Assembly: GCF_028368855.1 (NCBI RefSeq)
Contig: NZ_JAQNCY010000001.1
Coordinates: 1 to 64,000, forward strand
Direction: 5' to 3'
DNA from: Leisingera sp. SS27
GTDB lineage: Bacteria > Pseudomonadota > Alphaproteobacteria > Rhodobacterales > Rhodobacteraceae
Length of the DNA: 64,000 nucleotides
The notes below the pieces were generated by a model that was not told the origin of the DNA, did not search any database, and worked only from the letters and a program-made list of their open reading frames with translations. Shown one piece after another: positions 6,059-25,800 of the stretch (its first letter is position 1; every line of letters starts with the position of its first letter). The position numbers and the translations under genes were made by a program.

Positions 6059-6302
6059 TTCGATCTCCCTGACGTCTCGTCGGGAAGATGGGTGCATCGG
6101 CGTCAAACGAAAAACTTCTTTGGGCCTCAGATGGATTGACAGTGCATTGGTTCAAACAGTTGGGCAGCATGCCTTTAGGGCTTTAGGGGATTCTGGTGAA
6201 CAATTAGCGCACTCGTTGGTTGAGTTGCATCAATGAAAGTGGAAAAACTGTGTGCAACAAGAGGGTTGCCAGAAAGACGATACCCTCAGATTTGGAGACG
6301 AA

Positions 6303-10143: not shown

Positions 10144-13100
10144 TGCATGAATTCCAGTTTGATATTGGAGAAAATGGCCTTCGAGTACGAATTTCACACC
10201 AAAAGGCAGGGTTGTTTGCACGCTTTCGGAAACGGGAACCTGTAGATCTAAAAACACTTGCAGGCGCTGAAAGAACCCTTGCAATTGCCCTTTCAAGGAT
10301 CCGGGCTTTGGATCGTGACACAGATCATCACGAGCTTTCGGCTGATAACTTGTGGCTGGATCATTGGATGGTGTCGCGGCTGGATGACATGTCAGCTTCT
10401 GTGCTGGGCATACCCGGAAAACTCTCAGGTGTAGTGTTCCATGCGGAAATGCGAGGATCCCTTGGGAGCGAGAGCTTTGCTCTGCAGTGGTGGTGGGAGC
10501 GTGAAAAGCGGCAAATTCGGCTCAATCGTACGGGTGCGATAGTAGAATCTGGCGGCGTTTTCATGCGATTGCCTGCGCAGATTTATGACGCAATCATCTT
10601 GTCTGAAGCCTTCGACAGCGGCAGACCTCTGCCAGAACATTGGCACGCTCTTTCGGAATTTCGCGCGGCATTGGGTGATCTTGAAGATGACGGATTAACG
10701 CGGCCAGAACGTTATCTGGAAAAGGTGGAAATTGTCGCGTGTGACAAGGTGGGGTTGGCTGTCGATCCCGAGGATCCATTGGGATTTGCGCCGTTACCAT
10801 TTGTATCTCAGCAAATCCGGCAAGGAGAAATGGCGTCCGAGGTTTCCGCCGCGCTCCAGGGCAATGAGCTTTCTGCGTTCAAAGACGATTCCAACCGCCG
10901 CGGCGCTCAACCAGCATATCGGGTAGGAGAGAACAGGTTCCTGATCCTGGACAAGTCTGTTGTGCCGGTTGTCGATGTGATTTCGCGCCATGCAAGAGGA
11001 ACAGACCAGGAGAAGAGGAATTTCCTCGAAAATGCAGATCGCTTAGTTGCAGAAGCGATTGAGCAAGCTCTGATAGATGAGGGTCGGCTGAACGAACTGA
11101 TGCCGTCTGCCGATCTGGTAGATGCGGTTGAAACAGAGTTCGAAAAAGCTTGGGCTGAAACGCGGGAGTGGACTGATCGCGTTATCGAGATCAGGAAGTG
11201 GACCAAGCCCGAGATCGAAATTCTTGAAGGATCTGGCACGTCGTGGCTGCCTGAAGACATTGACGCTGTCGTTGGTGAGATCCTGGGTACCATTCCAGAA
11301 GAGGATCTGGATACCGTGTTGAAGGCTCTCCTTGTTGCGCAGGAGAGCGGGGATCTGGAGGTCCTGCTTGAACAAGGAGTTCTTCCTGTCACGGAGTTGG
11401 TTATCCAGGCAGTGAGACGGCGTCTGGAACTGTATCTCAATCGAACCAGCCAGGATCAGGCAGAAGAAGGCGAGGTCACGGCCATTTTGCCGGTGACGCA
11501 TGACAATTTCTGGGAACTCGAATTCCGCGAAAGGTTGCGCGACAGGCCATCAGCAACGGAGCAAGGGTTGCCCAGTTCGCTAAAGACATCTTTGCACGTG
11601 CATCAGAGAAACGCCTTTGATTGGCAAGTATCTGCATGGGAGGCCGGTCTCCCTGGAATCCTGAATGCTGATGAACAAGGCCTTGGAAAGACCGTTCAAA
11701 CGCTTTCTTTCCTGGCTTGGTTGAATGAGAGGATGACGAAAGGTGAGTTGCCCACCAAACCGTTTCTCATTGTCGCCCCCACATCCTTGCTTAGGAATTG
11801 GGAAGATGAAACCAGGAAGCACCTTCTGCCGGGTATTATCGATGAGCCGGTTCGTCTCTATGGCCGCGAACTCAAGGCGTGGCGCGTTCAGGGTGAACGG
11901 GGCAGGGACATTCAGGATGGTCGCGCGAAACTTGACCTCTCCAGTCTTGTTGATTGCTCCGAGCCGCGACTCGTAATTACCACTTACCAAACTTTGGCAA
12001 ATTACGCGGTGACCTTTGCCCAAACTCCTTTCGAAGTCGCCGTGTTTGATGAAATCCAGAATCTCAAGAACCCATCAACGTTGCGTTCGAATGCGGCGAA
12101 GGCTGTAAACGCTGACTTTCGAATTGGTTTGACTGGAACTCCCGTTGAGAATGCTACCCGCGACATTTGGGCTATCATGGATCAGCTGTTTCCCGGGGCT
12201 CTGGGTGCGCTCAACGATTTTCGTATCGCCTTTGACATTCCAAAGCAGGGTAACATGCAAGAGTTGCACCGTGCCGTGTTCTCATCGATCAACGGGTACC
12301 CGGCATTGGGCATTCGACGTACAAAAGAGAAAGCTGCATCGGATCTGCCACCCAAAGTGAGGGTGCTGCATCCACGCATCATGCCAGAGATCCAAGCGCT
12401 CAGATATGATGAGGCTCGTAAACCCGGGCAATCCCTGTTTGGCCTCCTGCACCACATCAGGAGAACATCCTTGCATCCGGGTTTGTTGGAAGGTGAAGCG
12501 CCTGAAACTTTTATCCACGCTTCAGCCCGTATTGAGGCTGCCATGGATGTCCTTCGAGCGATCCAGGCAAAGGGGGAAAAGGCGCTCGTGTTTGTCGAGA
12601 ACAGGGATGTTCAAGCCTGGTTTGCTGAACTGGTCAAAATCGAATTCGGCTTGCCACGCGTCGAAATCATCAATGGATCAACACCGGTGTCGCATCGAAA
12701 GGAAATCACGGACCATTTTCAACGCCACATGCAGCATGATGAAGGTTTCGATGTCCTTGTATTGGGGCCGCGTGCGGCAGGTACGGGGTTGACCCTGACA
12801 GCGGCAAACCACGTGATCCATTTGACTCGCTGGTGGAATCCCGCGGTCGAAGAACAATGCAACGACCGAACTCACCGCATTGGACAGACCCGCCCGGTAA
12901 CTGTGCATATCCCCTTGGCTATACACCCGCGCCTCCAGCGCGGTTCTTTTGATTGCCTGTTGCAGAACTTGATGAAGAACAAAAGATCCCTGGCAGACAG
13001 CGTTCTATGGCCTCCTGAAAGTGATGAAAGCGAGGTCCGCGCGCTTTACGACGCAATCGTTTCCGCTGAGGAGGAGGATGGTCTCGCCACAGATGAGGGG

Positions 13101-13358
13101 CTTGTACTCTCAGGCCGCCCGGACTTGGAAACGCAGGAGCTTGGCGAGAACATACTTCGGGTGTGCCTGAAGGGGGGAGGAGCCTCGGTCGTAGTAGCTC
13201 TGGATGGTGCAGACCTTCAGCGGGTTATCTTAAGGCCAGAGACGGATGCTGCGGCAATCGTCCTTTCTGACTTCCACAATCTTCCTGAAGGCACGAATGT
13301 TCCAACGTCAATTCTGGGTGGGGCTGCGCTCTGGCCAGAGTTCGTATTGCCGGATTGA
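10143..13358 (+). CDS. zorD: Zorya protein ZorD (SNF2-family helicase/nuclease effector)
   Basis: 1071 aa from the ATG overlapping the zorC stop; an upstream in-frame ATG at 10110 would overlap zorC by 34 bp and is not needed. Residues 490-930 form an SNF2-type ATPase: DEQGLGKT (510-517), DEIQ (636-639), GLTGTPVEN and CNDRTHRIGQ (906-915). The N-terminal 450 residues and the C-terminal 150 show no motif I can name. In E. coli, ZorD is an ATP-dependent nuclease-helicase held inactive until ZorAB signals, after which it degrades phage DNA. Length matches the known type I ZorD. A long hairpin lies just after the stop. Confidence 0.93.
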   Translation: MHEFQFDIGENGLRVRISHQKAGLFARFRKREPVDLKTLAGAERTLAIALSRIRALDRDTDHHELSADNLWLDHWMVSRLDDMSASVLGIPGKLSGVVFHAEMRGSLGSESFALQWWWEREKRQIRLNRTGAIVESGGVFMRLPAQIYDAIILSEAFDSGRPLPEHWHALSEFRAALGDLEDDGLTRPERYLEKVEIVACDKVGLAVDPEDPLGFAPLPFVSQQIRQGEMASEVSAALQGNELSAFKDDSNRRGAQPAYRVGENRFLILDKSVVPVVDVISRHARGTDQEKRNFLENADRLVAEAIEQALIDEGRLNELMPSADLVDAVETEFEKAWAETREWTDRVIEIRKWTKPEIEILEGSGTSWLPEDIDAVVGEILGTIPEEDLDTVLKALLVAQESGDLEVLLEQGVLPVTELVIQAVRRRLELYLNRTSQDQAEEGEVTAILPVTHDNFWELEFRERLRDRPSATEQGLPSSLKTSLHVHQRNAFDWQVSAWEAGLPGILNADEQGLGKTVQTLSFLAWLNERMTKGELPTKPFLIVAPTSLLRNWEDETRKHLLPGIIDEPVRLYGRELKAWRVQGERGRDIQDGRAKLDLSSLVDCSEPRLVITTYQTLANYAVTFAQTPFEVAVFDEIQNLKNPSTLRSNAAKAVNADFRIGLTGTPVENATRDIWAIMDQLFPGALGALNDFRIAFDIPKQGNMQELHRAVFSSINGYPALGIRRTKEKAASDLPPKVRVLHPRIMPEIQALRYDEARKPGQSLFGLLHHIRRTSLHPGLLEGEAPETFIHASARIEAAMDVLRAIQAKGEKALVFVENRDVQAWFAELVKIEFGLPRVEIINGSTPVSHRKEITDHFQRHMQHDEGFDVLVLGPRAAGTGLTLTAANHVIHLTRWWNPAVEEQCNDRTHRIGQTRPVTVHIPLAIHPRLQRGSFDCLLQNLMKNKRSLADSVLWPPESDESEVRALYDAIVSAEEEDGLATDEGLVLSGRPDLETQELGENILRVCLKGGGASVVVALDGADLQRVILRPETDAAAIVLSDFHNLPEGTNVPTSILGGAALWPEFVLPD

Positions 13359-13454: not shown

Positions 13455-15020
13455 TCAACTTGCGGCTTCGAATATTGGGTCTTCATCCTCGCCAAGCGGC
13501 AGTTGGAAGTTCAGTACGTTGGAGGACGTCGATGAAATATGCAAATCTGCCGACCGGTAGGCCTCAAGCACCCTGGCAAGACGCTTCTTATTTCTCCAGT
13601 TTTCCTGTGTGTCTTCGTGCTTCTTGTTTGCCATGTGCCGCGAGTGCAAACGATCTGCAATCGTTTCGTTCTCCTGATTGAACAATGGTTGGTTATTCGG
13701 TTTTTCGAGGCTTTCAAGCAGCTCCATGATTTCCTTGATCTGGGCCGAATTCAGGATCTGACGAGCTTTGGAACTTAGGTTTTTCTGGATTTCTCGAGCA
13801 GTTGGCTCTTTGCCGGTTCTTTCGCGGTGACGCTCCCGCCGCTCAGCTACAATGCGAACCGGGTTTGACCAACCGGTGTCGTATTCCCGGATCATCACCA
13901 ATGCACATTCCATGTGGTACTCTGCATAGCGCGTAGCGATCCGTGCCGTTTCAACGTCGATTTCCTTCTGCGATCTTCCGAGCAGGAAGTGAATGACCAC
14001 CAAATACGACAGGACGGAAAAACCAATCCGGCGAATGAAGGATCCTGGCAGGAGGCTGTTGCCCCAAGTAGGGCGAAGCTCCTGCCACCACGCTTCAATG
14101 AAAGGCAGTGTCTCTGGGGCCAGCGTATAGTCGCCGCAGGAGTTCTTCTGCGCACAAAATGCATGCCACATTTCACGAAGGCCTTCCTGTTCTATCTTGT
14201 TCTTTTCTCCCTGGAAGAAAAGAAAATGATCGAACATGTCGGTGTCGGTCCGATTTTCAGCTATGACATAGTTGAAACGCTGGCAAAGGCCGTCGAGCAT
14301 GCTCGGGAGATCAATGTTCATCTTCCACGTTTCGCGTACTGTTAGGCCCAGAAATGTGAAGTGCGGGTCGGTAACAGTGAGCTTGTTTTCCTCGCTCTTT
14401 AGCCGGTTGGCGATTTCCTCATGAGAGTACGCGTCGAGCATCCATGGTTTGATCCGCGCGTAATTTGAATGAGTTAGAACCAATTTGAAGAATTGGCCCA
14501 CCTCGTCCTGGAACCAATAGGACCCGTTGTTCTCTTTCAGGTCGATAATCCATTGTGCATCGCTGCTGTATTTCGGGAACATCCGAACTGATGTGGTCTG
14601 GCCCTCACCAAACAGAGTGTCCTTAACCCGGTTTGTGGCCAGGGTTTTGGAACTTGCTGAAGAAGCCATGGCGATAGTCCAGAGGATCGGACTATGTGGC
14701 TTCATTCCTGGGATCATCAACGAGGCACCATTTTGTGTCAGCCAGGAAGACGCAATCATGATCAACTGGAACAAGGGGAGGGCGTAGCTGGTGTCTGTGG
14801 CATCGAAGTGCTTAAGCATGCGTTGGATGTAGGAGCCACGAGGCACGAGTGGCAGGATGTCCAGTGCCTCCGGGCGTTCCTTGACCGTGAGCATGGCGAC
14901 GAGGTCGCTTTTCTCCTTCTCGGTCAACGCTCGCTTGCGCTTGCCATCGTTTACCCGAAGATCATTGAACAGGCTCGGCTTGGTCTTACGGGTTGTTGGG
15001 GTCTTGGATTTCTGTGCCAT
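13455..15020 (-). CDS. DUF3987-like P-loop protein
   Basis: 521 aa from the ATG at 15020, which has AAAGG 7 nt upstream. The fold resembles DUF3987/YfjI proteins of mobile elements: a region ASSASSKT where a Walker A loop is expected (near residue 120), a following YWFQDEVGQFF segment resembling Walker B, and a helical end with RRIGFSVLSYLVVIHFLLG and repeated Ala-rich helices. The loop reads S-S-K-T rather than G-K-T/S, so nucleotide binding is doubtful. Such proteins usually act as replicative helicase/primase partners on plasmids and islands. It lies between two defence operons, converges on zorD and diverges from hsdM. Confidence 0.6.
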   Translation of the reverse strand: MAQKSKTPTTRKTKPSLFNDLRVNDGKRKRALTEKEKSDLVAMLTVKERPEALDILPLVPRGSYIQRMLKHFDATDTSYALPLFQLIMIASSWLTQNGASLMIPGMKPHSPILWTIAMASSASSKTLATNRVKDTLFGEGQTTSVRMFPKYSSDAQWIIDLKENNGSYWFQDEVGQFFKLVLTHSNYARIKPWMLDAYSHEEIANRLKSEENKLTVTDPHFTFLGLTVRETWKMNIDLPSMLDGLCQRFNYVIAENRTDTDMFDHFLFFQGEKNKIEQEGLREMWHAFCAQKNSCGDYTLAPETLPFIEAWWQELRPTWGNSLLPGSFIRRIGFSVLSYLVVIHFLLGRSQKEIDVETARIATRYAEYHMECALVMIREYDTGWSNPVRIVAERRERHRERTGKEPTAREIQKNLSSKARQILNSAQIKEIMELLESLEKPNNQPLFNQENETIADRLHSRHMANKKHEDTQENWRNKKRLARVLEAYRSADLHISSTSSNVLNFQLPLGEDEDPIFEAAS

Positions 15021-15352
15021 CTGCACGCCTTTCTACTTTTCTGCGTGCACGAGACGTGTTGTCATGAACCCAGATCAGGTAACTGGGTTTGATAGGGTGT
15101 CGAACTTCGGAAAATGCCAGGGGGCGACGACAACCGACAGTGTTTGTAAGTAACTGATATAAAAATGAAAAACTTGCAATTGCATCGCCGACAAACCGCC
15201 GACAAAATGCTGCTCAACGAGTTGCGGACAGGAAATTCCAACTTTTTTCTTTTCGATCCAGATCATTGAACCAACGATAAAAATCGGCCAAAACTCATCG
15301 CAAGGTTGTTCCGCCTCCAGGGCAGACCAGGAAGAATTTTCAAGGACAGATC
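15021..15352. promoter_or_regulatory. Divergent intergenic region with operator-like repeats before hsdM
   Basis: 332 bp without a gene, between the divergent DUF3987-like gene and hsdM. It holds a palindrome TGCAATTGCA at 15175-15184 and two direct copies of GCCGACAAA at 15187-15195 and 15198-15206, one helical turn apart. Both are good candidates for binding a repressor of the restriction operon or of the divergent gene. No controller gene is adjacent, so the cognate regulator would have to be elsewhere. A clear AAGGA box precedes hsdM. Confidence 0.4.
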
Positions 15353-16873
15353 ATGAGCATCGAAAAGACGTTATTTGCCGCCGCTGACAAGATGCGCGGC
15401 TCCATGGATGCCGGCGAGTACAAACACATCGCCCTGGGTCTGCTGTTTCTGCGTCACGTCTCGATGTCCTTTGAGCGCTTGCACGATCAGCTCTCCAAGG
15501 AAGATTACTCCGACCCGGAGGATCCGGATGAATACCTGGCCGAGAGCATCTTCTGGGTGCCGGAAAAGGCGCGATGGTCGACGCTGGCCAAGCAATCCAA
15601 GGATCCCAAGATCGGGATCATGATCGACGATGCCATGCGGGCGATCGAAGCGGACAATGAAAGTCTCAAGGGCGCGCTGCCCAAAGTCTTCGGCAAGGAG
15701 AGCATCGACCGCACCATGCTCACCGGCCTGATCGACCTGTTCACCAACCTCAAGATGGAAGGGAGCAAAGCTGACTTCGACCTCATCGGACGCATCTACG
15801 AATACTGTATCGGCGAATTTGCCAGTTCCGAAGGCAAGCGTGGCGGCGAATTCTATACGCCCAAATCCGTCGTTGACACGTTGATCGAGATGATTGAGCC
15901 GACCAAGGGCCGTGTCTATGACCCATGCTGCGGCACCGGGGGATTCTTCGTTCAGTCCGAAAAATTCATCGACGCCCACTCCGGCCAGCGCAATGACATC
16001 GCCATCTACGGGCAGGAGCGCAACCACACCACCTTTGGCCTCGCGCGCATGAACCTGGCGATCCGGGGTATTTTTGGCGACATCCGCTGGAATTCCGAGG
16101 GTACCCTGGTTAAGGACGCCTTTGCGGACGAACGGTTCGACTATGTCCTGGCAAATCCGCCTTTCAACATTTCAGACTGGTCGGGCGAGCTGCTGCGCGA
16201 AGATGCGCGCTGGAAGTATGGTGCGCCGCCGGTAGGCAACGCCAACTTCGCCTGGATCCAGCATATCCATCACCACCTTTCGGCATCCGGAATTGGCGGT
16301 GTGGTCATGGCCAATGGCTCCATGTCGTCCATGTCCGGGGGCGAAGGCGACATCCGCCGGGCGCTGGTTGAAGGCGACGCGGTGGATGCCATGGTGGCGC
16401 TGCCGGGGCAGCTGTTCTATGGCACGCAAATTCCGGCCTGCCTGTGGATCATGGCCAAAGACAAATCCAACGGCATTGCCAAGGACGCCAAGCTGCGCGA
16501 CCGGCGGGGTGAGGTGCTGTTCATCGATGCCCGCAAGATGGGTGCGCTGGTACCGGGCAGCCGCAAGCAGAAAGAACTGTCCGAGGAAGAGATCGCTCGT
16601 ATTGCCACCGCCTATCACGCCTGGCGGGGAGAGCCGGACGCAGGCGCCTATGAGGACGTGCCGGGTTTCTGCAAATCGGCGGACAAAGACGAGATCGCCA
16701 AGCACAATTTCGTCCTGACCCCGGGCCGCTATGTGGGGGCAGGGGCCGCCGAGGAGGATGATGAACCCTTTGAGGAGAAGTTCACCCGCCTGATGGAAGA
16801 GCTACGCGGCCAGTTCGCCGAGGGACGCCGGTTGGAGAAGGAGATCGAGGACCGGCTGGGGGTGTTGGGATGA
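15353..16873 (+). CDS. hsdM: Type I restriction-modification DNA methyltransferase subunit M
   Basis: 506 aa, usual HsdM length. A helical N-terminal domain (about 1-150) is followed by an N6-adenine methyltransferase: AdoMet motif I DPCCGTGGFF (190-199) and catalytic motif IV NPPF (268-271). With HsdS it methylates adenines in a bipartite target, and with HsdR it forms the restriction complex. The start has AAGGA 8 nt upstream and the stop overlaps hsdS by ATGA. First gene of a five-gene operon. Confidence 0.96.
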   Translation: MSIEKTLFAAADKMRGSMDAGEYKHIALGLLFLRHVSMSFERLHDQLSKEDYSDPEDPDEYLAESIFWVPEKARWSTLAKQSKDPKIGIMIDDAMRAIEADNESLKGALPKVFGKESIDRTMLTGLIDLFTNLKMEGSKADFDLIGRIYEYCIGEFASSEGKRGGEFYTPKSVVDTLIEMIEPTKGRVYDPCCGTGGFFVQSEKFIDAHSGQRNDIAIYGQERNHTTFGLARMNLAIRGIFGDIRWNSEGTLVKDAFADERFDYVLANPPFNISDWSGELLREDARWKYGAPPVGNANFAWIQHIHHHLSASGIGGVVMANGSMSSMSGGEGDIRRALVEGDAVDAMVALPGQLFYGTQIPACLWIMAKDKSNGIAKDAKLRDRRGEVLFIDARKMGALVPGSRKQKELSEEEIARIATAYHAWRGEPDAGAYEDVPGFCKSADKDEIAKHNFVLTPGRYVGAGAAEEDDEPFEEKFTRLMEELRGQFAEGRRLEKEIEDRLGVLG

Positions 16874-18093
16874 GCGCTTGGTGCAAAACATCCCTTGGTG
16901 AAGTTTTGGAACTTAAAAGGGGGTATGACCTCTCAAAGGCGAAAAGGCTTCCAGGACCTTACCCAGTAATCTCATCCTCTGGCCCCAGTGACTTTCATAC
17001 TGAAGCCAAAGTGGATGGCCCCGGAGTGATCACTGGGCGCTATGGAACCATAGGTCAGGTGTTCTACACTGAAGTTCCGTTTTGGCCTTTGAATACAGCG
17101 CTTTACGTACGTGATTTCAAAGGAAATTGTCCCAGATTTTGTTTCTACTTTCTACAAACTTTGGACTGGAGCAAGTTCAACGACAAAAGCGGCGTCCCTG
17201 GCGTAAACAGAAATGACGCGCATCTGGAGCCTGTTGTGATTCCTCCTGTTGATGAGCAACGCCAAATTGCTGCGATCCTTGGGGCGCTGGATGACAAGAT
17301 CGAGCTGAACCGCAAGACGGCAGCGACTTTGGAAGAGATGGCGCGGGCGCTGTACCGGTCGTGGTTCGTTGATTTCGACCCCGTCCACGCCAAAGCCGCT
17401 GGCCGCGTCCCAGCCCATATGGCGCCCCAAACCGCCGCCCTCTTCCCCGCCAGCTTTGGTGAGGATGGCCTGCCGGAAGGTTGGCAAGTGCAGCCACTAC
17501 TTGAAGTCGTGGAGTTGTTGTCAGGTGGGACGCCGAAAACGTCGGTGCCGGAATTCTGGAATGGCGATATACCCTGGGCCAGTGCAAAAGACGTCAGTCA
17601 GTGCGGAAAGGCTTTCTTGATAACGACTGAGCGTACGATCACAGCGGAGGGCCTGAAGAAGAGTAGCACGAAGATCATTCCAAAGTTTTCCACGGTCGTC
17701 GTCGCTCGTGGGGCCACGACAGGGAGAGCCTGTATGTTTGGCGATGACATTGCGATGAATCAGACCTGCTACGCTCTAAGGTCTCGAAATGATCGACCCT
17801 TCTTTGCCAATTGCCTGTTCATGACCGAAGTCTTGGGCATAACTCTTGCCGCACATGGTTCGGTGTTTGACACGATCACGACGAAGACACTTCAAGCAGC
17901 TTCGGTGGTTTCGCCGTGCGAGGGACTGTCCGAGGTCTTTGAGAGGGAGGTTTCCCCCATGTTCAATCGAATTCTGGATTTGACCCGAGAAAACCAAACC
18001 CTCGCCACCCTCCGTGACACGCTCCTACCGCGCCTGATGTCTGGCGAATTACGTGTTGGAGAGGCGAAAGAGCGGGTGGAGGAGATCGTGTGA
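16870..18093 (+). CDS. hsdS: Type I restriction-modification specificity subunit S
   Basis: 407 aa with the standard two-half layout: target-recognition domain 1 (about 1-125), a conserved helical spacer with DEQRQIAAILGALDDKIELN and YRSWFVDFDPVHAKA, domain 2 (about 205-340), and a C-terminal helix ending LRDTLLPRLMSGEL. Domain 2 begins with the typical GWQVQPLLEVVELLSGGTP. HsdS fixes the DNA target of the M2S and R2M2S complexes; the target sequence cannot be deduced here. Base composition inside both recognition domains is more AT-rich than in the spacer, as expected for exchanged domains. The stop overlaps the next start (TGATG). Confidence 0.95.
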   Translation: MSAWCKTSLGEVLELKRGYDLSKAKRLPGPYPVISSSGPSDFHTEAKVDGPGVITGRYGTIGQVFYTEVPFWPLNTALYVRDFKGNCPRFCFYFLQTLDWSKFNDKSGVPGVNRNDAHLEPVVIPPVDEQRQIAAILGALDDKIELNRKTAATLEEMARALYRSWFVDFDPVHAKAAGRVPAHMAPQTAALFPASFGEDGLPEGWQVQPLLEVVELLSGGTPKTSVPEFWNGDIPWASAKDVSQCGKAFLITTERTITAEGLKKSSTKIIPKFSTVVVARGATTGRACMFGDDIAMNQTCYALRSRNDRPFFANCLFMTEVLGITLAAHGSVFDTITTKTLQAASVVSPCEGLSEVFEREVSPMFNRILDLTRENQTLATLRDTLLPRLMSGELRVGEAKERVEEIV

Positions 18094-18893
18094 TGGCTTT
18101 TTCGCCGGGAGATCTTCGAGACTATCTTCGTCACGTTTCCGCTTGGGTATGGCGAGAGCAGGATGATGCACTTCACTATGGCTTGAAGCTCCAGGAAGAA
18201 ACGATCACTGAAATGCTCCTTCTTCGCATGGCGCGAGAGTGTTCTTCTTCAGGTTTGAACGTCAAGATGTTCAGTCGAACCGAAGAAGGTGGAAACAAGA
18301 AATACAAAAAAATCGGAAACGGAGCTGATTGGGAGTGGTTCGTCGAAACCCCATACTGTTCAGTCGGATTTCGGGTGCAGGCTAAGGTGTTGTCTTCTCG
18401 AATTACTCCCGTAAAACGGAGTTTGTCGTTTGGTAAATACGAGGGTTTTCCCCGTGACAAAAAGCAAACTGACGAGTTGATTTCGAGTGCCAGCAGCGCT
18501 GGGTACAACCCGATCTATGTTTTCTATAACCATCCCTGGATCTCTGACCGATCGATGTTTTCGTCGGCCTCCCACCCATTTTCCATAGCAGGAAGCGATT
18601 GGGGCTGTTCCATTGCTACAGCAAATTTTGTCAAATCTGCTCCAGACTACAAGTTGTCGTCTCTTATCAAAGGGATGTTGCCCTGGCACTTATTTTTTGG
18701 TGTGGATCGTGGATGCGTGACAAAGCGTGCTATGGGACATTTGCCTGGGGGACAAGATTTCATACCCGAAGCACCTCGACCAGAGTGGTTGTACTTTGCA
18801 CATGATGGCCCTCATGCAGTCAATGAATACCTGATCGAGAGAAAACTCTCCGGGGTTGCGTATTTTCAATTTCAAGATTTTTGGGATGAGTAG
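18093..18893 (+). CDS. DUF6615-like putative nuclease embedded in hsd operon
   Basis: 266 aa from the ATG overlapping the hsdS stop. The central GADWEWF (77-83) and, after a short strand, VQAK (95-98), preceded by a helix with Glu36 and Glu40, match my memory of DUF6615, whose members share a GADWEW...QAK core. The spacing E-(x)n-D79-x-E81-Q96-x-K98 looks like a PD-(D/E)xK nuclease fold with a Q-x-K variant. This is inference; no activity is known to me. It is translated with hsdS and followed without a gap by the DUF4268 gene. AT-richer than hsdM, so it may have been inserted into the operon. Confidence 0.6.
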   Translation: MAFSPGDLRDYLRHVSAWVWREQDDALHYGLKLQEETITEMLLLRMARECSSSGLNVKMFSRTEEGGNKKYKKIGNGADWEWFVETPYCSVGFRVQAKVLSSRITPVKRSLSFGKYEGFPRDKKQTDELISSASSAGYNPIYVFYNHPWISDRSMFSSASHPFSIAGSDWGCSIATANFVKSAPDYKLSSLIKGMLPWHLFFGVDRGCVTKRAMGHLPGGQDFIPEAPRPEWLYFAHDGPHAVNEYLIERKLSGVAYFQFQDFWDE

Positions 18894-20030
18894 ATGTTCC
18901 AAGTAGACCTTTCAAAAAACCGTATTCAAAAGCTTGAAGAAAAAAAATTTTCTGACCTCAACCTGCGAGAACGGGAGCATCTCCAGGAATGGCTGGCTGG
19001 GCAGCCGGATGCCTTGGGCGAGGAGTTGCTGATCATCCAGAAAGAATTCGACGGTTTCGCCGACACGCGCGAACGACTCGACCTGCTGGCGCTCGACAAG
19101 GACGGGCAGTTGGTGGTGATCGAAAACAAGCTCGACGACAGCGGACGCGATGTGACCTGGCAGGCGCTGAAATACACCGCCTATGTTTCTGGGCTCACCA
19201 AAACGCAGATCATCGACATCTACCAGCAGTACCTGGACCGGTATTGCGGAGGCGGAAATGCTGCGGCGCAGATCTGCGAATTCCTGGATGTTGAAGAGCT
19301 TGGTGAGGTCATCCTGAATCCGGGGAATGACCAGCGTCTGATCTTCATCGCTGCCAACTTCAGGAAGGAAGTCACATCGACCGTCCTCTGGCTGCGTGAG
19401 CATCGCATTGATGCGCGGTGCTTCAAGGTCGTGCCGTATGCGTTTGGAGAAGAACTCTTTGTTGATATCCAGCCGGTGATCCCCACGCAAGAAGCCGCGG
19501 ATTTCATGATCGGGATGGCAGAGAAAGAGACCGAGGCTAAGACTGTCCAGGGGGTTCAGCGGCGTAGCCACAAGTTGCGCCTTGAATTCTGGACCCAGGC
19601 GCTCGACGCCCTTCGGGCTCGAGGATTGAGCCGCTACAATAACATCAGCCCAACAAAAGATCATTGGTTGAGTTCAGGAACCGGCGTTTCGGGTGTCGTT
19701 TACAGCCTGATCTACTCGAAAGACGAGGCGCGGGTTGAGCTCAGTATCCAGAGAGCGGACAAGGCTGAGAACAAGTGGTTGTTTGACGAATTGAAGGAAG
19801 AGAAGGAAGAGATCGAAAGGGAATTTGGAGCCGAGCTGAATTGGAAACGGATGGACGAAAAAAAATCCAGCCGGATAGAGTACGCAAAGCCGTTTGATGG
19901 ATTTAACAGAGAAAACTGGCCGGAAATGATAGATTGGCTGGCGCAGCACATTGCCAAGCTTGACGGGGCCCTCGGCGATCAATTGAAGCGCCTGAACCAG
20001 TCTCTCAAGTCAGGGGAGAACTTGATCTGA
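18894..20030 (+). CDS. DUF4268 protein with NucS/PD-(D/E)xK-like nuclease domain
   Basis: 378 aa, starting directly after the previous stop (TAGATG) and overlapping hsdR by TGATG. Residues 40-100 carry a nuclease core: D63 in [10 protein letters not shown]77-N-K79 in VVIENKL and Q90xxxY94 in the next helix, the layout of NucS/RecB-like enzymes. The C-terminal half (from about 230, [18 protein letters not shown]) matches DUF4268. Proteins of this type occur singly near defence genes. Here the gene lies inside a type I restriction operon, so a role as accessory nuclease or DNA-end sensor is plausible but unproven. Confidence 0.75.
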
Positions 20031-23000
20031 TGGCCTGGGCAAGCGAAGCGGACCTTGAAGCTGTCTTCATGGAAGACCTTGGGGCGCTGGGGTACTCCGT
20101 CCACCACGGTTCTGAGATTTCGCCTGAAATGCGCAATCCGATGAGAACGAGTTTCCGAGAAACCTTTCTTCTGCCGGTGTTCTTCGATGCGCTGAAACGA
20201 CTGAACCCTGAGCTGCCGGTCACTGCGGTGCAGGAGGCCGCGACGCGGGTACATGATGTCGTGTACGCCACTGACGTTGTCCAGGAAAACCGGCGTCTGC
20301 ATGACCTTCTCGTCAATGGTGTGGCTCTGACCTATTTCGCCGATGGTGAAGAACGCAATGCGCGTGTTCAGATTGTCGATTGGGAAAACCAGAAGAATGA
20401 CTGGCGTGCCGTCAATCAGGTTGATGTAGTCGGAAAGAACCCTCGGATACCGGATGTGGTGCTATTCCTGAACGGCCTGCCACTGGTCGTTGTTGAGCTG
20501 AAGGGGACGGAAGGGGCCGGAATTGACGCCGCCTATCGGCAGATTGACACATACAAAGAAGATATCCCTGATCTGTTTCGCACGTCGCTCCTCACCGTGA
20601 TTTCGGATGGGCTGAACGCCCGCTATGGCTCGTTGTCGGCCGGATTGGATCGTTTCATGCGATGGCGTACCATCGACGGTGAAACCATAGTCGAAGAAAA
20701 AACGTCTCTTGCTCTCAAAACTCTGACCCAAGGGCTTTTGGATCCACAGACGCTTCTGGACCTGATACGCTGGTTTGTAGTGTTCGAGGATGAGGGTAGG
20801 GGACCGGTCAAGAAAATCGCCGGCTACCATCAATTCCATGCAGTACGGAAGGCGATCCAGACGATTCTGACGGCTCAGGGGGGCGATGGCAAAGGCGGTG
20901 TCATCTGGCACACACAAGGGTCTGGTAAGTCTCTGCTGATGACTTTCCTTGCCGGGCGCGTTATGCGGCACCCTGGCCTTGAAAACCCGACCCTGGTGGT
21001 TCTGACTGACCGTAATGATCTGGATAATCAGCTTTTTGCGACCTTCGGTCGGTGCAAGGATCTGTTTGGCGAAGATCCAGTCCAGGCCGACAGCATCAGT
21101 GATCTGAAAGACCTACTTAATCGTGAAGTGGGTGGCGTTGTCTTTTCCACGATTCAGAAATTCCGCCCGGAAACAGGTGAAGTTTTCCCGGAACTGACGG
21201 ACCGGTCCAACGTGATCGTCATGGTCGATGAGGCGCACCGCACTCAATACGGGTTCGAGGCGAAGATGAAGAAGGAGACTGGGGAAGTCCGTCATGGACT
21301 TGCATACCAACTTCGTCAGGCGCTCCCCAATGCTGTTTACATCGCCTTCACAGGAACTCCTGTTGAGTTGGTCGGAGCTAACACAAGGGGTGTATTTGGC
21401 GAATACATTGATGTGTATGACATCGCTCAAGCCGTCGAGGATGGAGCGACGGTTCCAATCTACTATGAAGCAAGAGTTGCCAAGGTCGAGCTGGACGAGG
21501 AGTTTTCCAGGGAACTCGACGAGAAATTCGACGAAGCCACCGAAATAATGGAAGATACTGAGGCGGCGGCGATCGCTCGAAAATGGTCGCGTGTCGAAGC
21601 ACTGGTTGGAGCCAACAAGCGCCTGGATACGGTGGTCGAAGACATCCTGGAGCATTTCGACGCGCGGCTTGAGGCGATGAACGGCAAGGCGATGATTGTT
21701 TGCATGAGCCGACGCATCTGCGTGGAAGTGTACAATAGGATCGTGGAACTGAGGCCTGAATGGCATGGGGACACTGACGAAACTGGTCAGGTCAAAGTCA
21801 TCATGACTGGCAGCGCAACAGATCCCGCAGAATTTCGGCCCCATATTCGCTCGAAGTCCCGCCAGGAAGCGATCAGGAACCGCACCAAGGATCCAGCGGA
21901 TCCGTTGAAGCTCGTCATCGTCCGTGACATGTGGTTGACCGGATTTGATGCACCCTGCATGCATACACTTTATGTCGACAAGCCGATGCGAGGGCATGGC
22001 CTCATGCAAGCTATCGCCCGGGTGAACCGTGTATTTCAGGACAAACCTGCAGGGCTGGTCGTTGATTACATTGGTATCGCTGCGGAATTGAAAAGTGCGC
22101 TTGCTCACTACAGTCAGTCCGACCAGCAACAGACAGGGATCAGTGAAGCCGAGGCCGTCGCGGCTTTCCTGGATGCGCTTGACGTGGCGCGCACCCAGTT
22201 CCATGGGTTTGACTACTCTCAAGCTTTGGGAGGGACGCCTGCGGAACGGCTTCGCGTACTACCGAGTGCTCTCGATCACATTTTGCAAAGCGACAGACTG
22301 GGTGAAGGCGGGGCAGTGAAACGCTTCAACGATGCCACTGCGGCCCTGGTAAAGGCCTTCAAACTCGCCTCAGGCAGTCCTCAAGCCACCGACCACACGG
22401 AAGAAGTAGCCTTTTTCTCTGCCATCAGATCAGGCCTGGAAAAAGTTGGGGCGGCGCCGGTTGGGCGGTCATCCCGGAATCCGGATTTCGCAATTCAGCA
22501 GCTTGTGAATCGTGCAGTTGCGTCAACAGAAGTTGTTGATATCCTTGAAGCTTGCGGCTTCGATCGTCCTGATATCAGCATTCTGTCTGATGCCTTCATG
22601 ATCGAAATCCAAAATATGAAGTACAAGAACCTGGCGGTGGAAGCTCTCAAGAAGCTTCTGAACGGTGAGATCTCTGCGAAGACCAGAACGAATATCGTTC
22701 AGAAAGAGGAGTTTTCCTCTCGTCTGGAGCAAGCGATTGCTAAATATCACAATAGAAGTGTCGACGCCCTTCAGATCCTTCAGGAACTGATCGAAATTGC
22801 GAAGGACCTTCGGGATCAACCTGACGACGGTTTGTCTGCGGAAGAACGCGCATTTTATGATGCCCTGTCGCAAAATGACAGCGCGGTTGAGATCATGGAC
22901 AATGATAAGTTGCGTGTAATAGCCGCGGAACTGGTGAATACGGTACGAAAGAATTCAGGTACGGATTGGTGGCGCCGGGATAATGTGCGAGCCAGGATGC

Positions 23001-23113
23001 GTATTGCAGTGAAGAAAATTCTTCAGCGGCATGGGTACCCGCCTGATCTTGCATCTGAGGCTGTGAAGACCGTTCTTCGTCAAGCCGAAGCCCTGGCAGT
23101 CGAGTTACGTTGA
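20030..23113 (+). CDS. hsdR: Type I restriction enzyme endonuclease/translocase subunit R
   Basis: 1027 aa, usual HsdR length. The N-terminal nuclease has D142 (RIPDVV), E157-L-K159 (VVVELKG) and Q171xxxY175. The motor that follows has Walker A QGSGKS (296-301), DEAH (400-403), FTGTPVEL and a second RecA-like domain (IARVNRVFQ). HsdR translocates unmodified DNA past the bound complex and cuts at a distance. All catalytic residues are intact, so the system should restrict. The start overlaps the DUF4268 gene, confirming a single transcript hsdM-hsdS-X-Y-hsdR. Confidence 0.97.
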
Positions 23114-23297
23114 GCGACACGTTGAACCAAAGAGAGAGGCCTCACGGTCGTATGGTACCTCTTCAACTGTATCAGTTTCTTCTGACGAGCGGTGAGCGCT
23201 CTGTAATCCCGGCCTACGCGTGCCGGTGCAAATCTCATTCCCCAGAGTTTTCCTGGTGATATAGTTTGAGTGTTTTTTTGATGGAAAGAGATGAGCC

Positions 23298-23543
23298 ATG
23301 GATGATAGAGCGCTGATTTCTGAAATTAGCAGAATTTTGGATACGCATGGTCTTGAGCATGGCAAGCGAGACGCGGCTTTGGGTGTGCTTTGGATCGTAT
23401 TGCATCCAAATTCCACGCCGACCTCAAAAAAGAATATTTGCGACGATGGAAGTATCCTCAATAGTCAGCGCTGGACTCTATTCAACAATCAACGTGAGAC
23501 CGAAATGAAAGTCGAACTCCACTATAATACTGACATAAAGTAG
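23298..23543 (+). CDS. Small hypothetical protein after hsdR
   Basis: 81 aa, no family recognised. The ATG is preceded by a purine-rich AAAGAGATGAG stretch and, further up, by an AT-rich segment that could hold a promoter. N-terminal residues look helical (ALISEISRILDTHGL). The remainder is polar. It stands 184 bp after hsdR and converges on the PrtN/IS66-remnant region. Reality of the gene is uncertain. Confidence 0.4.
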   Translation: MDDRALISEISRILDTHGLEHGKRDAALGVLWIVLHPNSTPTSKKNICDDGSILNSQRWTLFNNQRETEMKVELHYNTDIK

Positions 23544-23599
23544 GCTTGCAGTGATTGGACACCGCCCCTTTCTCAGCAAGCTGAAATTGGGACGGCGCA

Positions 23600-23715
23600 T
23601 CTCAAGACGGAGAAAGTGAGGATCCTTCAACCATTCGAAAATGGGGTTCGCATTGGCTGCATATCGCTGCGCCACCAGTGCTACTGAAATCCCCTGCGTC
23701 GTTGCCTGCGCTCAA
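23600..23715 (-). pseudogene. Remnant of IS66-family orfA (TnpA)
   Basis: Translated on the minus strand this reads GISVALVAQRYAANANP followed by IFEWLKDPHFLRL. That is the helix-turn-helix and W-L-R-D-P segment typical of IS66 OrfA proteins. Only about 35 codons are recognisable; neither orfB, the large transposase, nor terminal repeats are present, so it is a dead fragment. It shows that an insertion sequence once sat at this end of the island. It may overlap the end of the small ORF at 23298-23543. Confidence 0.5.
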
Positions 23716-23797
23716 CTCTCGTGCTCTTCTTCGTCCGATTAAAACCCCTGCTTCCGCCCGCCCATAAATCACTCGTCAAGGCGCGGTCAGGTCGGGC

Positions 23798-24082
23798 TCA
23801 ACGGGCGCTTGCGTCGAATGCGGCGTCTTCCCAGATAGAAACGAATTTCTCCTGCGCAGCTGTGAACTGAACGTCAATCAGTCGAGCGAGATCCGTGAGC
23901 TGTATGAATTTCTGAGCCTTCTGGCTGTTGTTCTCTACTCCAGTGTATGGCAAGCGGATGTCGCCGCCGTCGATTTTTTGCTTCAGCGTATCCGGCTTGT
24001 AGTTCAAATACTGCGCTACGTGTTCCAGCGGGATAATCGGATTTCCGCCGAAATGGGCGAGCAGCATGTCGATGGTTTTCAT
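23798..24082 (-). CDS. PrtN-family (pyocin activator) transcriptional regulator
   Basis: 94 aa from the ATG with AAGGAG 6 nt upstream; a longer in-frame start would add 15 residues with no support. It matches the PrtN family in length and pattern: N-terminal MKTIDMLLAHFGGNPIIPL, then a helix-turn-helix-like YLNYKPDTLKQKI, a GDIRLPY turn, KAQKFIQLTDLARLID and a basic end. In Pseudomonas PrtN activates pyocin genes. Small PrtN relatives next to island integrases probably act as element regulators or directionality factors. It lies downstream of the integrase in the same direction. An 8-bp inverted repeat (GATGGCCG, 24157-24184) lies between them. Confidence 0.8.
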   Translation of the reverse strand: MKTIDMLLAHFGGNPIIPLEHVAQYLNYKPDTLKQKIDGGDIRLPYTGVENNSQKAQKFIQLTDLARLIDVQFTAAQEKFVSIWEDAAFDASAR

Positions 24083-24191
24083 CTTGGTCTCCTTTGCTTG
24101 TGGAGAGGAAATGCGTTTCTGCTTCAAAAGGCGGAAAACTGGTTTGATAGGAGTTTGATGGCCGATGCATGGAACCCGGCCATCGGGGTTA

Positions 24192-25454
24192 TCAGTGAAG
24201 TGACTTGCATCTCTCCAGGATCAGTTGATGCCAGTCCCAGTTGGCGAATTTGTCGCCTTCTTCTTCAACGTGTTCGTAGCGGTACAGACATCCACCATTC
24301 TTGTGACCTGAGATTTTTCTGACGAATGAAGCAGACTTTCCCATCTCGAATTGCCGACTGATGGCTTCGTGCCGAAAGTCATGGAAGCGCAGATCGACGA
24401 CTCCGACCTTGTCCCGGTGGCGGCGGTATGCTGTCCCAACCGAGCGCGGATTGTAAGGGAAGATGAACTCAGACGTCCTGGGCATTGCCAGGATAATCTC
24501 CAACGCTTCGCTCGGAAGAGTGCACCAAACGTTGTTTCCCTTTTTTTGCCTGGGATGTTTCATGTCGCGCACGAGGATCGTGCCACTATTCACGCGCAGA
24601 TCATCCCACCTCAGTCTGCAGATTTCGCTCAGACGACGCGCCGAATAGATTGCAAAGACCGCCAGGATGTCTGCAGGTATCTTCTGCCGAGGATTTTCCG
24701 AGATAGCAGTCAGGATTTTGTTCAGCTCACAGAGTTCTGGTCGGCGATCGCGCTCTTCGGATCGAGCCAGAACCTCATCTTCCCAAAGAGTTCGCATGGC
24801 CAGGCTGACCACTTCGATGGGAATCAAAGCTCCTCGGTCCTTGGCCCAGGAGAGTGTCCTCGCCAGGTGAGTCATGTATCCCGCGACAGTCTGCGGCATT
24901 CTTTCACCAGCCGACAATAGATCTGCATAGTCGTATAGCTGTTGCTGGGTCAGCGTTGATACCTTGGTCTTTCCGAACTCGTCGGCCTTGATGAACGTCA
25001 GCACTTGAAGGGCAGATCGGCCAAGGGTTTTTCCGCGCTTCAATCGATCGTCGATGACATCTGAGATTGTAGTTTCCGTCACGACTTGAATTGGAAACCC
25101 GTTTAGCTCGATGTCGCGGAGTTGGTTGTTTCGCCATTTTTTGGCGTTCGGTAAGTGCTTGAAGGTTTTCGTGAGGCTGTGCTGTTTGCCATCCACACGC
25201 TTTCGGATTTGTACCCGGTAGGAGAACTTTCCATTCTTACCTTCAAACCGAGTGATGTTCTGTTCCTCGAATTTTTTCCCAGGGATCTCCTTGCGAGGTT
25301 TCTTTTCTTTCTGCTCGGCCGACGAGATCGGCATGGTGCTTTCTGAAACCCCGGCAGCAGTCACAGTGGTTGCTTGAGAAGGGGAGCGGTGGAAGAGGTT
25401 CTGGGCAGTAATCGCTGCGAGCACATCCGTTGTGCTTTTGTTGATAGTGGTCAT
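24192..25454 (-). CDS. int: Tyrosine integrase of a dusA-targeted element
   Basis: 420 aa from the ATG at 25454 (MTTINKSTTD); the frame stays open another 108 codons into antisense dusA, which I treat as non-coding. An N-terminal arm-binding region (FEEQNITRFEGKNGKFSYRV) is followed by a core-binding domain and the catalytic domain: box I SARRLSEICRLRW, HDFRH (H358, R361), ISGH (H384) and Tyr393 in RYEHV. All residues of an active enzyme are present. It lies beside the 5' end of dusA, pointing away from it, as in integrases that insert elements into the start of dusA. It most likely integrated the whole 1-25.7 kb block. Confidence 0.92.
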   Translation of the reverse strand: MTTINKSTTDVLAAITAQNLFHRSPSQATTVTAAGVSESTMPISSAEQKEKKPRKEIPGKKFEEQNITRFEGKNGKFSYRVQIRKRVDGKQHSLTKTFKHLPNAKKWRNNQLRDIELNGFPIQVVTETTISDVIDDRLKRGKTLGRSALQVLTFIKADEFGKTKVSTLTQQQLYDYADLLSAGERMPQTVAGYMTHLARTLSWAKDRGALIPIEVVSLAMRTLWEDEVLARSEERDRRPELCELNKILTAISENPRQKIPADILAVFAIYSARRLSEICRLRWDDLRVNSGTILVRDMKHPRQKKGNNVWCTLPSEALEIILAMPRTSEFIFPYNPRSVGTAYRRHRDKVGVVDLRFHDFRHEAISRQFEMGKSASFVRKISGHKNGGCLYRYEHVEEEGDKFANWDWHQLILERCKSLH

Positions 25455-25620
25455 GGAATTCGTCCCATCTTGATTTCGATGACAGGGAATTCGGTTCGTC
25501 CACACGAAAAAAGATTCCGGGGTTTGATAGCCAAATTCCGAGGGAAGAAGGGAAGATGGAACCGGTGGTGCCCGGGCCAGGAACCAGCTGCATTTGGGCC
25601 GCTGTTTGTAGGCTTTGGAT

Positions 25621-25700
25621 GTGCTACACCGTAGCACGCTCGAATCGAGAACCTCCGAAAATCCCCGGAAATACGGTGAAATCAGGGGAAATCGTGCTAC
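25621..25700. repeat. GTGCTAC boxes beside the attachment site
   Basis: GTGCTAC at 25621-25627 and GTAGCAC at 25631-25637 form a short inverted repeat, and a third, direct copy lies at 25694-25700. They sit between the integrase start and the dusA coding region, where arm-type integrase sites or int promoter operators are expected. No functional evidence beyond position and repetition. Confidence 0.4.
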
Positions 25701-25731
25701 GCCAAGTTTGGAGCTGAATGGAGTTAACGCT

Positions 25732-25800
25732 TTGAAAAATAACGCACAAAAAGCAGCGCGTTTAAGCGTGGCACCCATGATGGACTGGACCGACCGGCAC
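25732..25800. other. Probable island-chromosome junction (attR) in the dusA 5' end
   Basis: The sequence changes from AT-rich (up to about 25770) to strongly GC-rich from the codons for SVAPMMDWTDRH onward, the conserved dusA 5' segment used as target by dusA-specific integrases. The integrase gene lies immediately upstream. The exact crossover and the length of the repeated core cannot be fixed because the partner attL copy is outside the window. Confidence 0.6.

What the first reader, a model, noticed from the sequence alone, without database searches (positions are those of the whole stretch)
15353..23113. Type I restriction operon with two extra nuclease-like genes between hsdS and hsdR
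Seen: hsdM-hsdS-X-Y-hsdR, each start overlapping or touching the previous stop. X has a GADWEW...QAK core (DUF6615-like). Y has D63, E77-x-K79 and QxxxY with a DUF4268 C-terminus. Two additional PD-(D/E)xK-like proteins translated with the complex suggest a compound defence unit, for example DNA-end processing or backup killing when HsdR is inhibited. I do not know of a description of this exact five-gene unit.
Basis: partly seen in the sequence, partly recalled or inferred. Interest (0 to 1): 0.8.

Follow-up and report, generated by a model that had tools for sequence, protein, structure and literature searches.

The report
Sensor-swapping nuclease inside restriction operon
A bacterial DNA-restriction operon carries two extra, separately swappable nuclease-like genes, and one of them keeps the same cutting domain while exchanging its other half between strains, which looks like a defence enzyme that changes its sensor to keep up with phages.

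Summary
In detail: hsdM-hsdS-X-Y-hsdR (15353-23113) is one tightly overlapping operon in a low-GC island with Zorya I. X is a marginal DUF6615 match, probably PD-(D/E)XK. Y is a NucS/EndoMS-like nuclease domain plus DUF4268 and is already PADLOC candidate PDC-S11. Defence genes between hsdS and hsdR are a published pattern. A five-part machine is not supported: in four related operons with near-constant HsdM and HsdR, two X alleles and two Y alleles occur in all four combinations; near-identical Y also follows type III and BREX genes; 38 of 80 sampled Y genes sit in no recognised same-strand RM or BREX operon. New here: within Y the nuclease half is constant while the DUF4268 half is exchanged. 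Of 62 Y pairs with N-domains at least 95% identical, 24 have C-domains below 50% and none lie at 50-69%; hsdM, hsdR and X show no such split. Best reading: X and Y are independent nuclease cargoes, and Y carries an exchangeable C-terminal sensor, probably for a phage product. Nuclease activity, sensing and trigger are inferred; nothing was tested at the bench.

The parts
15353..16873 (+). hsdM, type I DNA methyltransferase subunit
   Evidence: Pfam HsdM_N 3.3e-22, N6_Mtase 2.7e-103; PADLOC MTase_I 7.8e-176
16870..18093 (+). hsdS, specificity subunit
   Evidence: Pfam Methylase_S 2.5e-32, two stretches; PADLOC Specificity_I 1.7e-109
18093..18893 (+). X: DUF6615-like, probable PD-(D/E)XK nuclease (E-D-QxK site), swappable cargo gene (alternative GTG start at 18090)
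   Evidence: Pfam DUF6615 8.1e-6; invariant E36/D80/Q97/K99 in 14 homologues; model pLDDT 62.6, Hjc/RecU at Z 7.0 and below, under three Rep15 rows at Z 8.4-8.8
18894..19478 (+). Y N-terminal domain (residues about 1-195): NucS/EndoMS-like nuclease, the constant part
   Evidence: VIA-align Z 11.0 to 2vld, 10.8 to 5gke; D63/E77/Q90 in 83 of 83
19479..20027 (+). Y C-terminal part (long helix plus DUF4268, residues about 196-378): the swapped, presumed sensor part
   Evidence: Pfam DUF4268 2.4e-41 at 228-360; nucleotide identity profiles; Z 7-8.7 to DR_1245, YbjN and secretion-chaperone folds
18894..20030 (+). Y whole gene, PADLOC candidate PDC-S11
   Evidence: PDLC04913 6.3e-176, residues 1-373 of the protein to positions 1-373 of 375
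20030..23113 (+). hsdR, type I restriction/translocase subunit (HindI-like C-terminus)
   Evidence: HSDR_N 4.8e-43, SWI2_SNF2 1.8e-76, T1RH-like_C 1.2e-112

Best explanation
X and Y are two separate defence cargo genes carried in the hsdS-hsdR junction of a type I restriction operon on an island, and translated with it. Y is a single-protein nuclease: its N-terminal NucS-like domain is the effector, and its C-terminal DUF4268 domain is an exchangeable recognition domain that probably binds a phage product, most likely a protein, and releases or directs the nuclease against DNA. X is a second, optional PD-(D/E)XK-like nuclease that is replaced as a whole gene. Both add a backup layer for phages that escape HsdR. 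Shown by sequence: operon structure, conserved active-site residues, whole-gene exchange of X, domain exchange within Y, and attachment of the same Y to different systems. Predicted by model: the nuclease folds (good for Y, moderate for X). Inferred: nuclease activity, sensing by DUF4268, a protein trigger, and the target being phage rather than host DNA.
For: Cargo and independence: four operons (window, L012, L030, L031) with HsdM 94-98% and HsdR 98-99% identity (L031 hsdR is split; both pieces 98%) hold two X alleles (99% / 97% within, 43-47% across) and two Y alleles (96% / 98% within, 76% across) in all four combinations. The slots beside Y may be empty or hold Fic, DUF3800, FRG or unnamed genes. 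Domain swap: in those four operons Y starts at 92-98% identity in every pair (300-nt rows from 19004 and 19154), then falls to 51-63% between alleles against 88-98% within (rows 19454-19754) and is back at 95-99% in hsdR. L043/L093: 90-99% through the nuclease part, 77% at the border, 45-56% in the C-part, then 81 and 98% until the L043 contig ends. Of 62 pairs with N (1-140) at least 95%, C (228-372) is below 50% in 24, 70% or more in 38, never 50-69%; controls hsdR 7 of 7, hsdM 13 of 13 and X 4 of 4 such pairs keep both halves at 90% or more. Partner freedom: C-allele A (96-99%, L045 88-90%) sits with type I (L040, L043), type III (L011, L042) and BREX (L039, L041, L045); allele B (97%) with BREX (L091) and type I (L093). 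Nuclease: Z 11.0 to NucS/EndoMS with conserved active-site residues. DUF4268 also occurs on GmrSD proteins (PMC4619093, passage), so it is portable. In a published panel of 100 P. aeruginosa strains, 90% of the 10 carrying PDC-S11 were in the phage-resistant group, a correlation only (PMC10855318, passage).
Against: No activity, binding or phage data were produced here. The swap rests on few groups: 4 of 8 N-domain groups hold two C-classes, three of them with C at 49% or less; pairs are not independent, and the 80 loci are the best-scoring of 398, heavy in Rhodobacterales. Not every pair shows recovery on both sides: after Y, L041/L091 stay unlike (31-42%), L057/L087 recover only to 60-85%, and L085/L107 fall gradually. 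The likeness of DUF4268 to secretion chaperones and YbjN is at Z 7-8.7 with rmsd about 4, a level the tool warns can be a common arrangement, and the Y model has pTM 0.51, so the domain arrangement is uncertain; a protein ligand is weakly based. The X model has pLDDT 62.6 and its top three rows are Rep15, not a nuclease. The coupled gene order would also fit a role with the HsdMS complex.
Confidence: 0.55

Rival explanations
1. Y is a type IV-like, modification-dependent enzyme: DUF4268 reads modified bases in phage DNA and the NucS-like domain cuts, complementing restriction systems that such phages escape, as TgvAB and BrxU do.
For: DUF4268 is found on GmrSD type IV proteins (PMC4619093); TgvAB in the same kind of operon slot targets hypermodified phages (PMC11411939); Y attaches to methylation-based systems; a changing reader domain would also fit varied modifications.
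Against: The predicted DUF4268 fold resembles protein-binding chaperones and YbjN in the rows listed, not a modified-base reader (weak, and absence from that list excludes nothing). No DNA-binding test.
Confidence: 0.22
2. Y is a guard of the RM system: its variable C-domain recognises phage anti-restriction proteins (DNA mimics such as Ocr or ArdA), so it pays to sit beside any system those inhibitors block. This is a special case of the best explanation.
For: Y attaches to several methylation-based systems and its sensor candidate is exchanged independently of them; published precedent that PARIS detects Ocr and that Ocr suppresses BREX (PMC12839542 section 35).
Against: No link to any anti-restriction gene was tested; Y outside recognised RM or BREX operons is common.
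Confidence: 0.2
3. X and Y are working subunits of the restriction complex, docking on HsdM2S for DNA-end processing or replacing an inhibited HsdR.
For: Tight translational coupling; X-Y pairs always beside RM genes (13 of 13; Fisher 1.1e-5 for X with type I Y loci, 13 of 37, against the rest, 0 of 43, not corrected for relatedness).
Against: Near-identical Y sits with type I, type III and BREX genes; 38 of 80 Y outside a recognised operon; X and Y reassort while HsdM and HsdR stay nearly constant; Pfam finds no HsdR-type tail in X or Y, unlike embedded FRG proteins.
Confidence: 0.12
4. X and Y form a toxin-antitoxin pair or an obligate two-protein system.
For: Adjacent genes with no gap; X was next to Y in 13 of 80 loci.
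Against: Y occurs without X in 67 of 80 loci; alleles reassort; an X homologue pairs with an Abi_C gene in L015; X homologues on three plasmids have neither Y nor hsd genes annotated nearby.
Confidence: 0.04

Closest known systems
PADLOC PDC-S11 (phage defence candidate found by guilt-by-embedding)
   Same: Y matches PDLC04913 over its full length (6.3e-176)
   Different: In the sources seen here no mechanism, no X partner and no domain exchange is described (2 papers hold the name; passage seen in one, PMC10855318, the other not opened; the preprint that defined it, Payne et al. 2024, is not held)
TgvAB, two-gene GmrSD system embedded in the V. cholerae VPI-2 type I RM operon
   Same: Five-gene T1RM operon with two embedded defence genes (PMC11411939, passages)
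   Different: TgvAB are DUF262/DUF1524 proteins and need each other; X and Y are PD-(D/E)XK-like and reassort
DarTG2 embedded between hsdS and hsdR (RptR island, EPEC)
   Same: Same slot; [quoted passage not shown]
   Different: A toxin-antitoxin system
NucS/EndoMS
   Same: Nuclease fold of the Y N-domain (Z 11.0) and weak sequence matches (NucS_C E 0.069; PRK04247 1.3e-4)
   Different: Only the C-terminal nuclease domain of NucS is matched; Y carries DUF4268 in addition
Shedu (SduA)
   Same: A PD-(D/E)XK nuclease with a variable sensory module, as described in PMC12839542 section 35; SduA among structural hits (8ps5, Z 6.4)
   Different: Sensor candidate is C-terminal in Y, N-terminal in Shedu by that text; the PADLOC scan of Y listed only PDC-S11 and PDC-S18 profiles
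BREX auxiliary and backup nucleases
   Same: Published idea of extra PD-(D/E)XK effectors beside BREX core genes (PMC12839542, first part of section 35)
   Different: NucS does not occur in that text and the paper is not among those holding DUF4268

Membership tests
Type I restriction-modification system | hsdM, hsdS and hsdR together in one operon | tested here: met
PDC-S11 | Full-length match to its profiles | tested here: met
   PDLC04913 6.3e-176, positions 1-373 of 375
PDC-S11 | Anti-phage activity | not testable with these tools
   no bench data; published correlation only (PMC10855318)
DUF6615 (PF20320) | Score over the curated cut-off | tested here: met
   25.9 against 23.8 bits for X; marginal; the X homologues of L015 and L014 score 29.5 and 34.2
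PD-(D/E)XK nuclease (Y) | Core fold and D...ExK site | tested here: met
PD-(D/E)XK nuclease (X) | Core fold and acidic/ExK-like site | tested here: inconclusive
   E36/D80/QxK invariant in 14; model pLDDT 62.6, Hjc Z 7.0, top rows Rep15 Z 8.4-8.8
GmrSD / TgvAB type IV | DUF262 and DUF1524 domains | tested here: not met
   absent from Pfam results of X and Y at E 0.1
Shedu | SduA nuclease by sequence or fold | tested here: inconclusive
   no Shedu profile among PADLOC hits of Y at E 0.01; structural hit Z 6.4
HsdR-docking effector | HsdR C-terminal (T1RH-like_C) tail | tested here: not met
   not in X or Y; present in FRG proteins of L097 and L044

The most novel reading that the evidence does not exclude
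Y is the prototype of a sensor-swapping guard nuclease: a constant NucS-like effector with a plug-in DUF4268 recognition domain that is exchanged by recombination, travelling between type I RM, type III RM and BREX operons and firing when a phage product, perhaps the anti-restriction protein that disables the host system, is bound. It would do for phage proteins what hsdS target domains do for DNA sites.
Probability: 0.3. Interest if true: 0.82.

Novelty: new variant of a known kind. Interest (0 to 1): 0.62.

Why it matters
Relatives of Y are widespread: 360 of 72,556 plasmid records match at E 1e-5 (226 Klebsiella, 41 Escherichia; 356 of the 360 below 60% identity, many near-duplicates), yet how this family works is not described in the papers found. 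The constant/variable split gives a sharp hypothesis (C-domain = specificity) and natural allele pairs, such as L043/L093 with 100% and 34% identical halves, that make it directly testable by a domain exchange in a laboratory strain. If true, methylation-based immunity systems carry a shared, adaptable second line of defence.

Tried and rejected
Rejected: X-Y as an obligate pair (reassortment; Y without X in 67 of 80). Y as an HsdR-like docking subunit by tail (none found). Gradual fast evolution of the C-domain as the sole cause: identities are two-peaked and the flank recovers after Y in the four window-type operons, in L043/L093 up to the contig end, and in L057/L078 (81-91%); it does not in L041/L091, and L085/L107 decline gradually, so those two pairs do not argue for a clean swap.

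Led nowhere: no solved structure matches the Y profile by sequence (0 at E 1); the X profile gave one chance-level hit (E 0.27). Phage records: 1 partial Y match (35.5% identity, 54% of the query) among 50,697. Viral contigs: 1 X locus and 9 Y loci; 5 of the 9 Y have hsd genes, the other 4 and the X locus show none of my other reference genes and were not examined further, so carriage by phages is not excluded. Promoter and terminator scans gave nothing useful (8 promoter-like against 4.2 expected, 9 terminator-like against 9.6). No attachment-site repeat was called: only 22900-26200 was searched, and the contig starts at window base 1, so the island's left end is not in it. Widening X by Pfam DUF6615 in the phylum (5 of 398 genomes at E 0.001, 4 over the cut-off) and by alignment in the class (5 of 385), both counts including the window's own genome, gave six further homologues that I opened (L141-L143, L150-L152): none has an hsd gene by my references, one (L151) lies near GmrSD and MmeI-type genes. 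Three weak genomes (G002, G320, G808) were not judged.

Counting notes: antisense unnamed ORFs were skipped as probable spurious calls and a gap limit of 400 nt was used; 'other' means no same-strand match to my reference proteins, so unusual RM or BREX types may be missed; L070, L076, L092 and L100 have hsd-like genes on the other strand or further off. BREX in L041, L045 and L091 rests on similarity to the three L039 proteins, of which PglZ and BrxL were confirmed by Pfam. In one search the L031 hsdR entry is its first 504-residue ORF only. HsdR loci have 1.5 kb flanks and some are partial, so their counts are lower bounds.

Literature: 10 of 10 searches used. Seen as passages only: PMC4619093, PMC11411939, PMC12255303, PMC10855318, PMC12988326; passages plus the first of two parts of section 35: PMC12839542. 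Everything else in the listings was seen as listing only. Payne et al. 2024 (bioRxiv 10.1101/2024.01.29.577857) is not held; known only from citations in those papers.
Full report
The observation. The junction hsdS/X reads gtgtgatgg, so X probably starts at ATG 18093 by a TGATG overlap. HsdM, HsdS and HsdR match their families strongly. X is a marginal DUF6615 match. Y is DUF4268 at its C-terminus and PADLOC candidate PDC-S11 over its whole length. The operon lies in a low-GC stretch (about 0.51-0.57 up to 25 kb, against mostly 0.58-0.65 beyond 26 kb) bounded on the right by an integrase and a dus gene, and it follows a complete Zorya I set by PADLOC profiles.

What X and Y are. The Y model (mean pLDDT 85, pTM 0.51) has two domains. 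Residues 26-182 match the nuclease domain of NucS/EndoMS (Z 11.0 and 10.8, rmsd 2.6-3.0); D63, E77 and Q90 are present in 83 of 83 homologues, K79 in 82 of 83. The DUF4268 part gives Z 7-8.7 with DR_1245, YbjN and secretion chaperones, a suggestive but weak sign of a protein-binding fold. The X model is poorer (62.6); below three Rep15 rows at Z 8.4-8.8 come Holliday-junction resolvases, Hjc at Z 7.0 and RecU at 6.2. E36, D80, Q97 and K99 are invariant in 14 X homologues. X is therefore probably, not certainly, a nuclease.

Where they occur. X is rare: 8 of 295 genomes of the family at E 0.001, own genome included. Of the five X proteins with 40% identity or more (own, G201, G241, G073, G112), four lie beside Y in an RM operon and one (G201, L010) does not. 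L012 has M-S-X-Y-R, L013 has a different type I family in the order M-S-R-X-Y, and L011 has type III RM genes followed by X-Y. L014 has distant forms of both in a type I operon; L015 has a distant X with an Abi_C gene in a type I operon. Of 7 plasmid records with an X homologue I opened 4: one sits beside hsdR, three have no RM gene annotated nearby. Y is common: 360 of 72,556 plasmid records at E 1e-5; of 8 regions opened, 7 are M-S-(slot)-Y-R and one is solo. Of these 80, 37 are in type I operons, 1 type III, 4 BREX and 38 other; X is next to Y in 13, all type I. BREX was confirmed by PglZ and BrxL domains in L039. From the other side, 26 of 295 family genomes have a close HsdR (27 loci); Y or a distant Y is beside it in 8 of 27, X or a distant X in 4, Abi_C in 3, and SIR2-like, NYN, IrrE-like and DUF3800-like genes fill the junction in others (some of these labels are my reading of the sequence).

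The junction is a cargo slot. In the 26 loci of the 80 with order S-Y-R, the gaps hold X in 9, other genes in 11 and nothing called in 6. This agrees with print: DarTG2 in the same slot, with the remark that it is a potential recombination hotspot (PMC12255303), and TgvAB (PMC11411939).

Independence of X and Y. The window, L012, L030 and L031 share HsdM (94-98%) and HsdR (98-99%; L031 hsdR is split in two ORFs). X is 99% between window and L031, 97% between L012 and L030, and 43-47% across. Y is 96% between window and L012, 98% between L030 and L031, and 76% across. All four combinations exist, so X and Y have been exchanged separately and need no allele-specific match. The type III locus L042 has no X between Res and Y, while L011, whose Res is 95% identical, has it.

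The new point: Y changes only its C-terminal half. A nucleotide profile of the four operons shows the start of Y at 92-98% in all pairs (rows from 19004 and 19154), then 51-63% between alleles against 88-98% within an allele (rows 19454-19754), and 95-99% again in hsdR. L043 against L093 shows the same, with 81 and 98% after Y up to the end of the L043 contig; L057/L078 recovers to 81-91%; L041/L091 does not recover after Y and L085/L107 declines gradually. Over 83 Y proteins, 62 pairs have N-domains (residues 1-140) at 95% or more; their C-domains (228-372) are below 50% in 24 pairs and 70% or more in 38, with none between. The reverse case, C at 90% or more with N at 70% or less, occurs in 0 of 3403 pairs. 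Split at residue 195, 24 of 59 pairs are discordant (C below 60%), while hsdR (7 of 7), hsdM (13 of 13) and X (4 of 4) keep both halves at 90% or more. The pairs are related to each other: the signal comes from 4 of 8 N-groups, three of them with C at 49% or less. C-allele A is found with type I, type III and BREX genes, and allele B with BREX and type I genes, so the C-allele does not follow the partner system.

Mechanism. A constant nuclease with an exchanged second domain, attached to unrelated systems, is best read as effector plus recognition domain. The fold hint, and the known presence of DUF4268 on GmrSD proteins (PMC4619093), leave two main options for what is recognised: a phage protein (favoured) or modified DNA. 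An anti-restriction protein as trigger would explain why Y sits beside systems such proteins inhibit; PARIS and Ocr are the published precedent (PMC12839542 section 35). A published strain panel reports PDC-S11 mostly in phage-resistant strains (90% of 10, PMC10855318), which is correlation only. None of the mechanism was tested here.

Novelty. Embedded defences in type I operons and PDC-S11 itself are known. In the library searched, no paper holds DUF6615, two hold DUF4268 and two hold PDC-S11 (one opened). A combined search found no paper, and a broader one on hypervariable sensor domains listed seven, of which I opened PMC12839542 only; I saw nothing on domain exchange in this protein. Subscription papers and the defining preprint were not available. 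I therefore file it as a new variant of a known kind.

Noticed in passing
L097 5708-7000 (+) and L044 2555-3838 (+): Genes embedded after hsdS code FRG-domain proteins whose C-terminal ~80 residues match the very end of the HsdR C-terminal domain (T1RH-like_C 4.8e-10, and 2.3e-8), as if to dock on the HsdMS core in place of HsdR. A PADLOC PDC-S15 profile also matches residues 929-1020 of the window HsdR.
   Followed up: partly
window 6252-13358 (+): Zorya type I set ZorA, ZorB, ZorC, ZorD upstream in the same island by PADLOC profiles; NCBIfam ZorA_1 matches ZorA below its cut-off.
   Followed up: no
window 24192-25778 (-) and 25615-26727 (+): Tyrosine integrase ORF overlapping the start of a dihydrouridine synthase (Dus) ORF: the island seems to sit at a dus gene; GC rises from about 0.52 to 0.60 and more there.
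   Followed up: partly
window 23798-24127 (-): Small PrtN-like (pyocin activator) protein gene between hsdR and the integrase.
   Followed up: no
window 13455-15026 (-): DUF3987 gene (marginal, 29.3 against 27 bits) between Zorya and the hsd operon on the opposite strand.
   Followed up: no
window 2090-5232 (-): Two adjacent genes with weak, below cut-off integrase matches near the left end.
   Followed up: no
L101 8155-9174, L020 5987-6997, L050 4874-5995: Fic-family genes recur in the slots beside Y (after hsdS, or between Y and hsdR).
   Followed up: no
L032 6422-6991, L053 2548-3120, L117 3-350: A recurrent ~190-residue gene family in the slot before Y, similar by eye; the L032 member has no Pfam match.
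   Followed up: no
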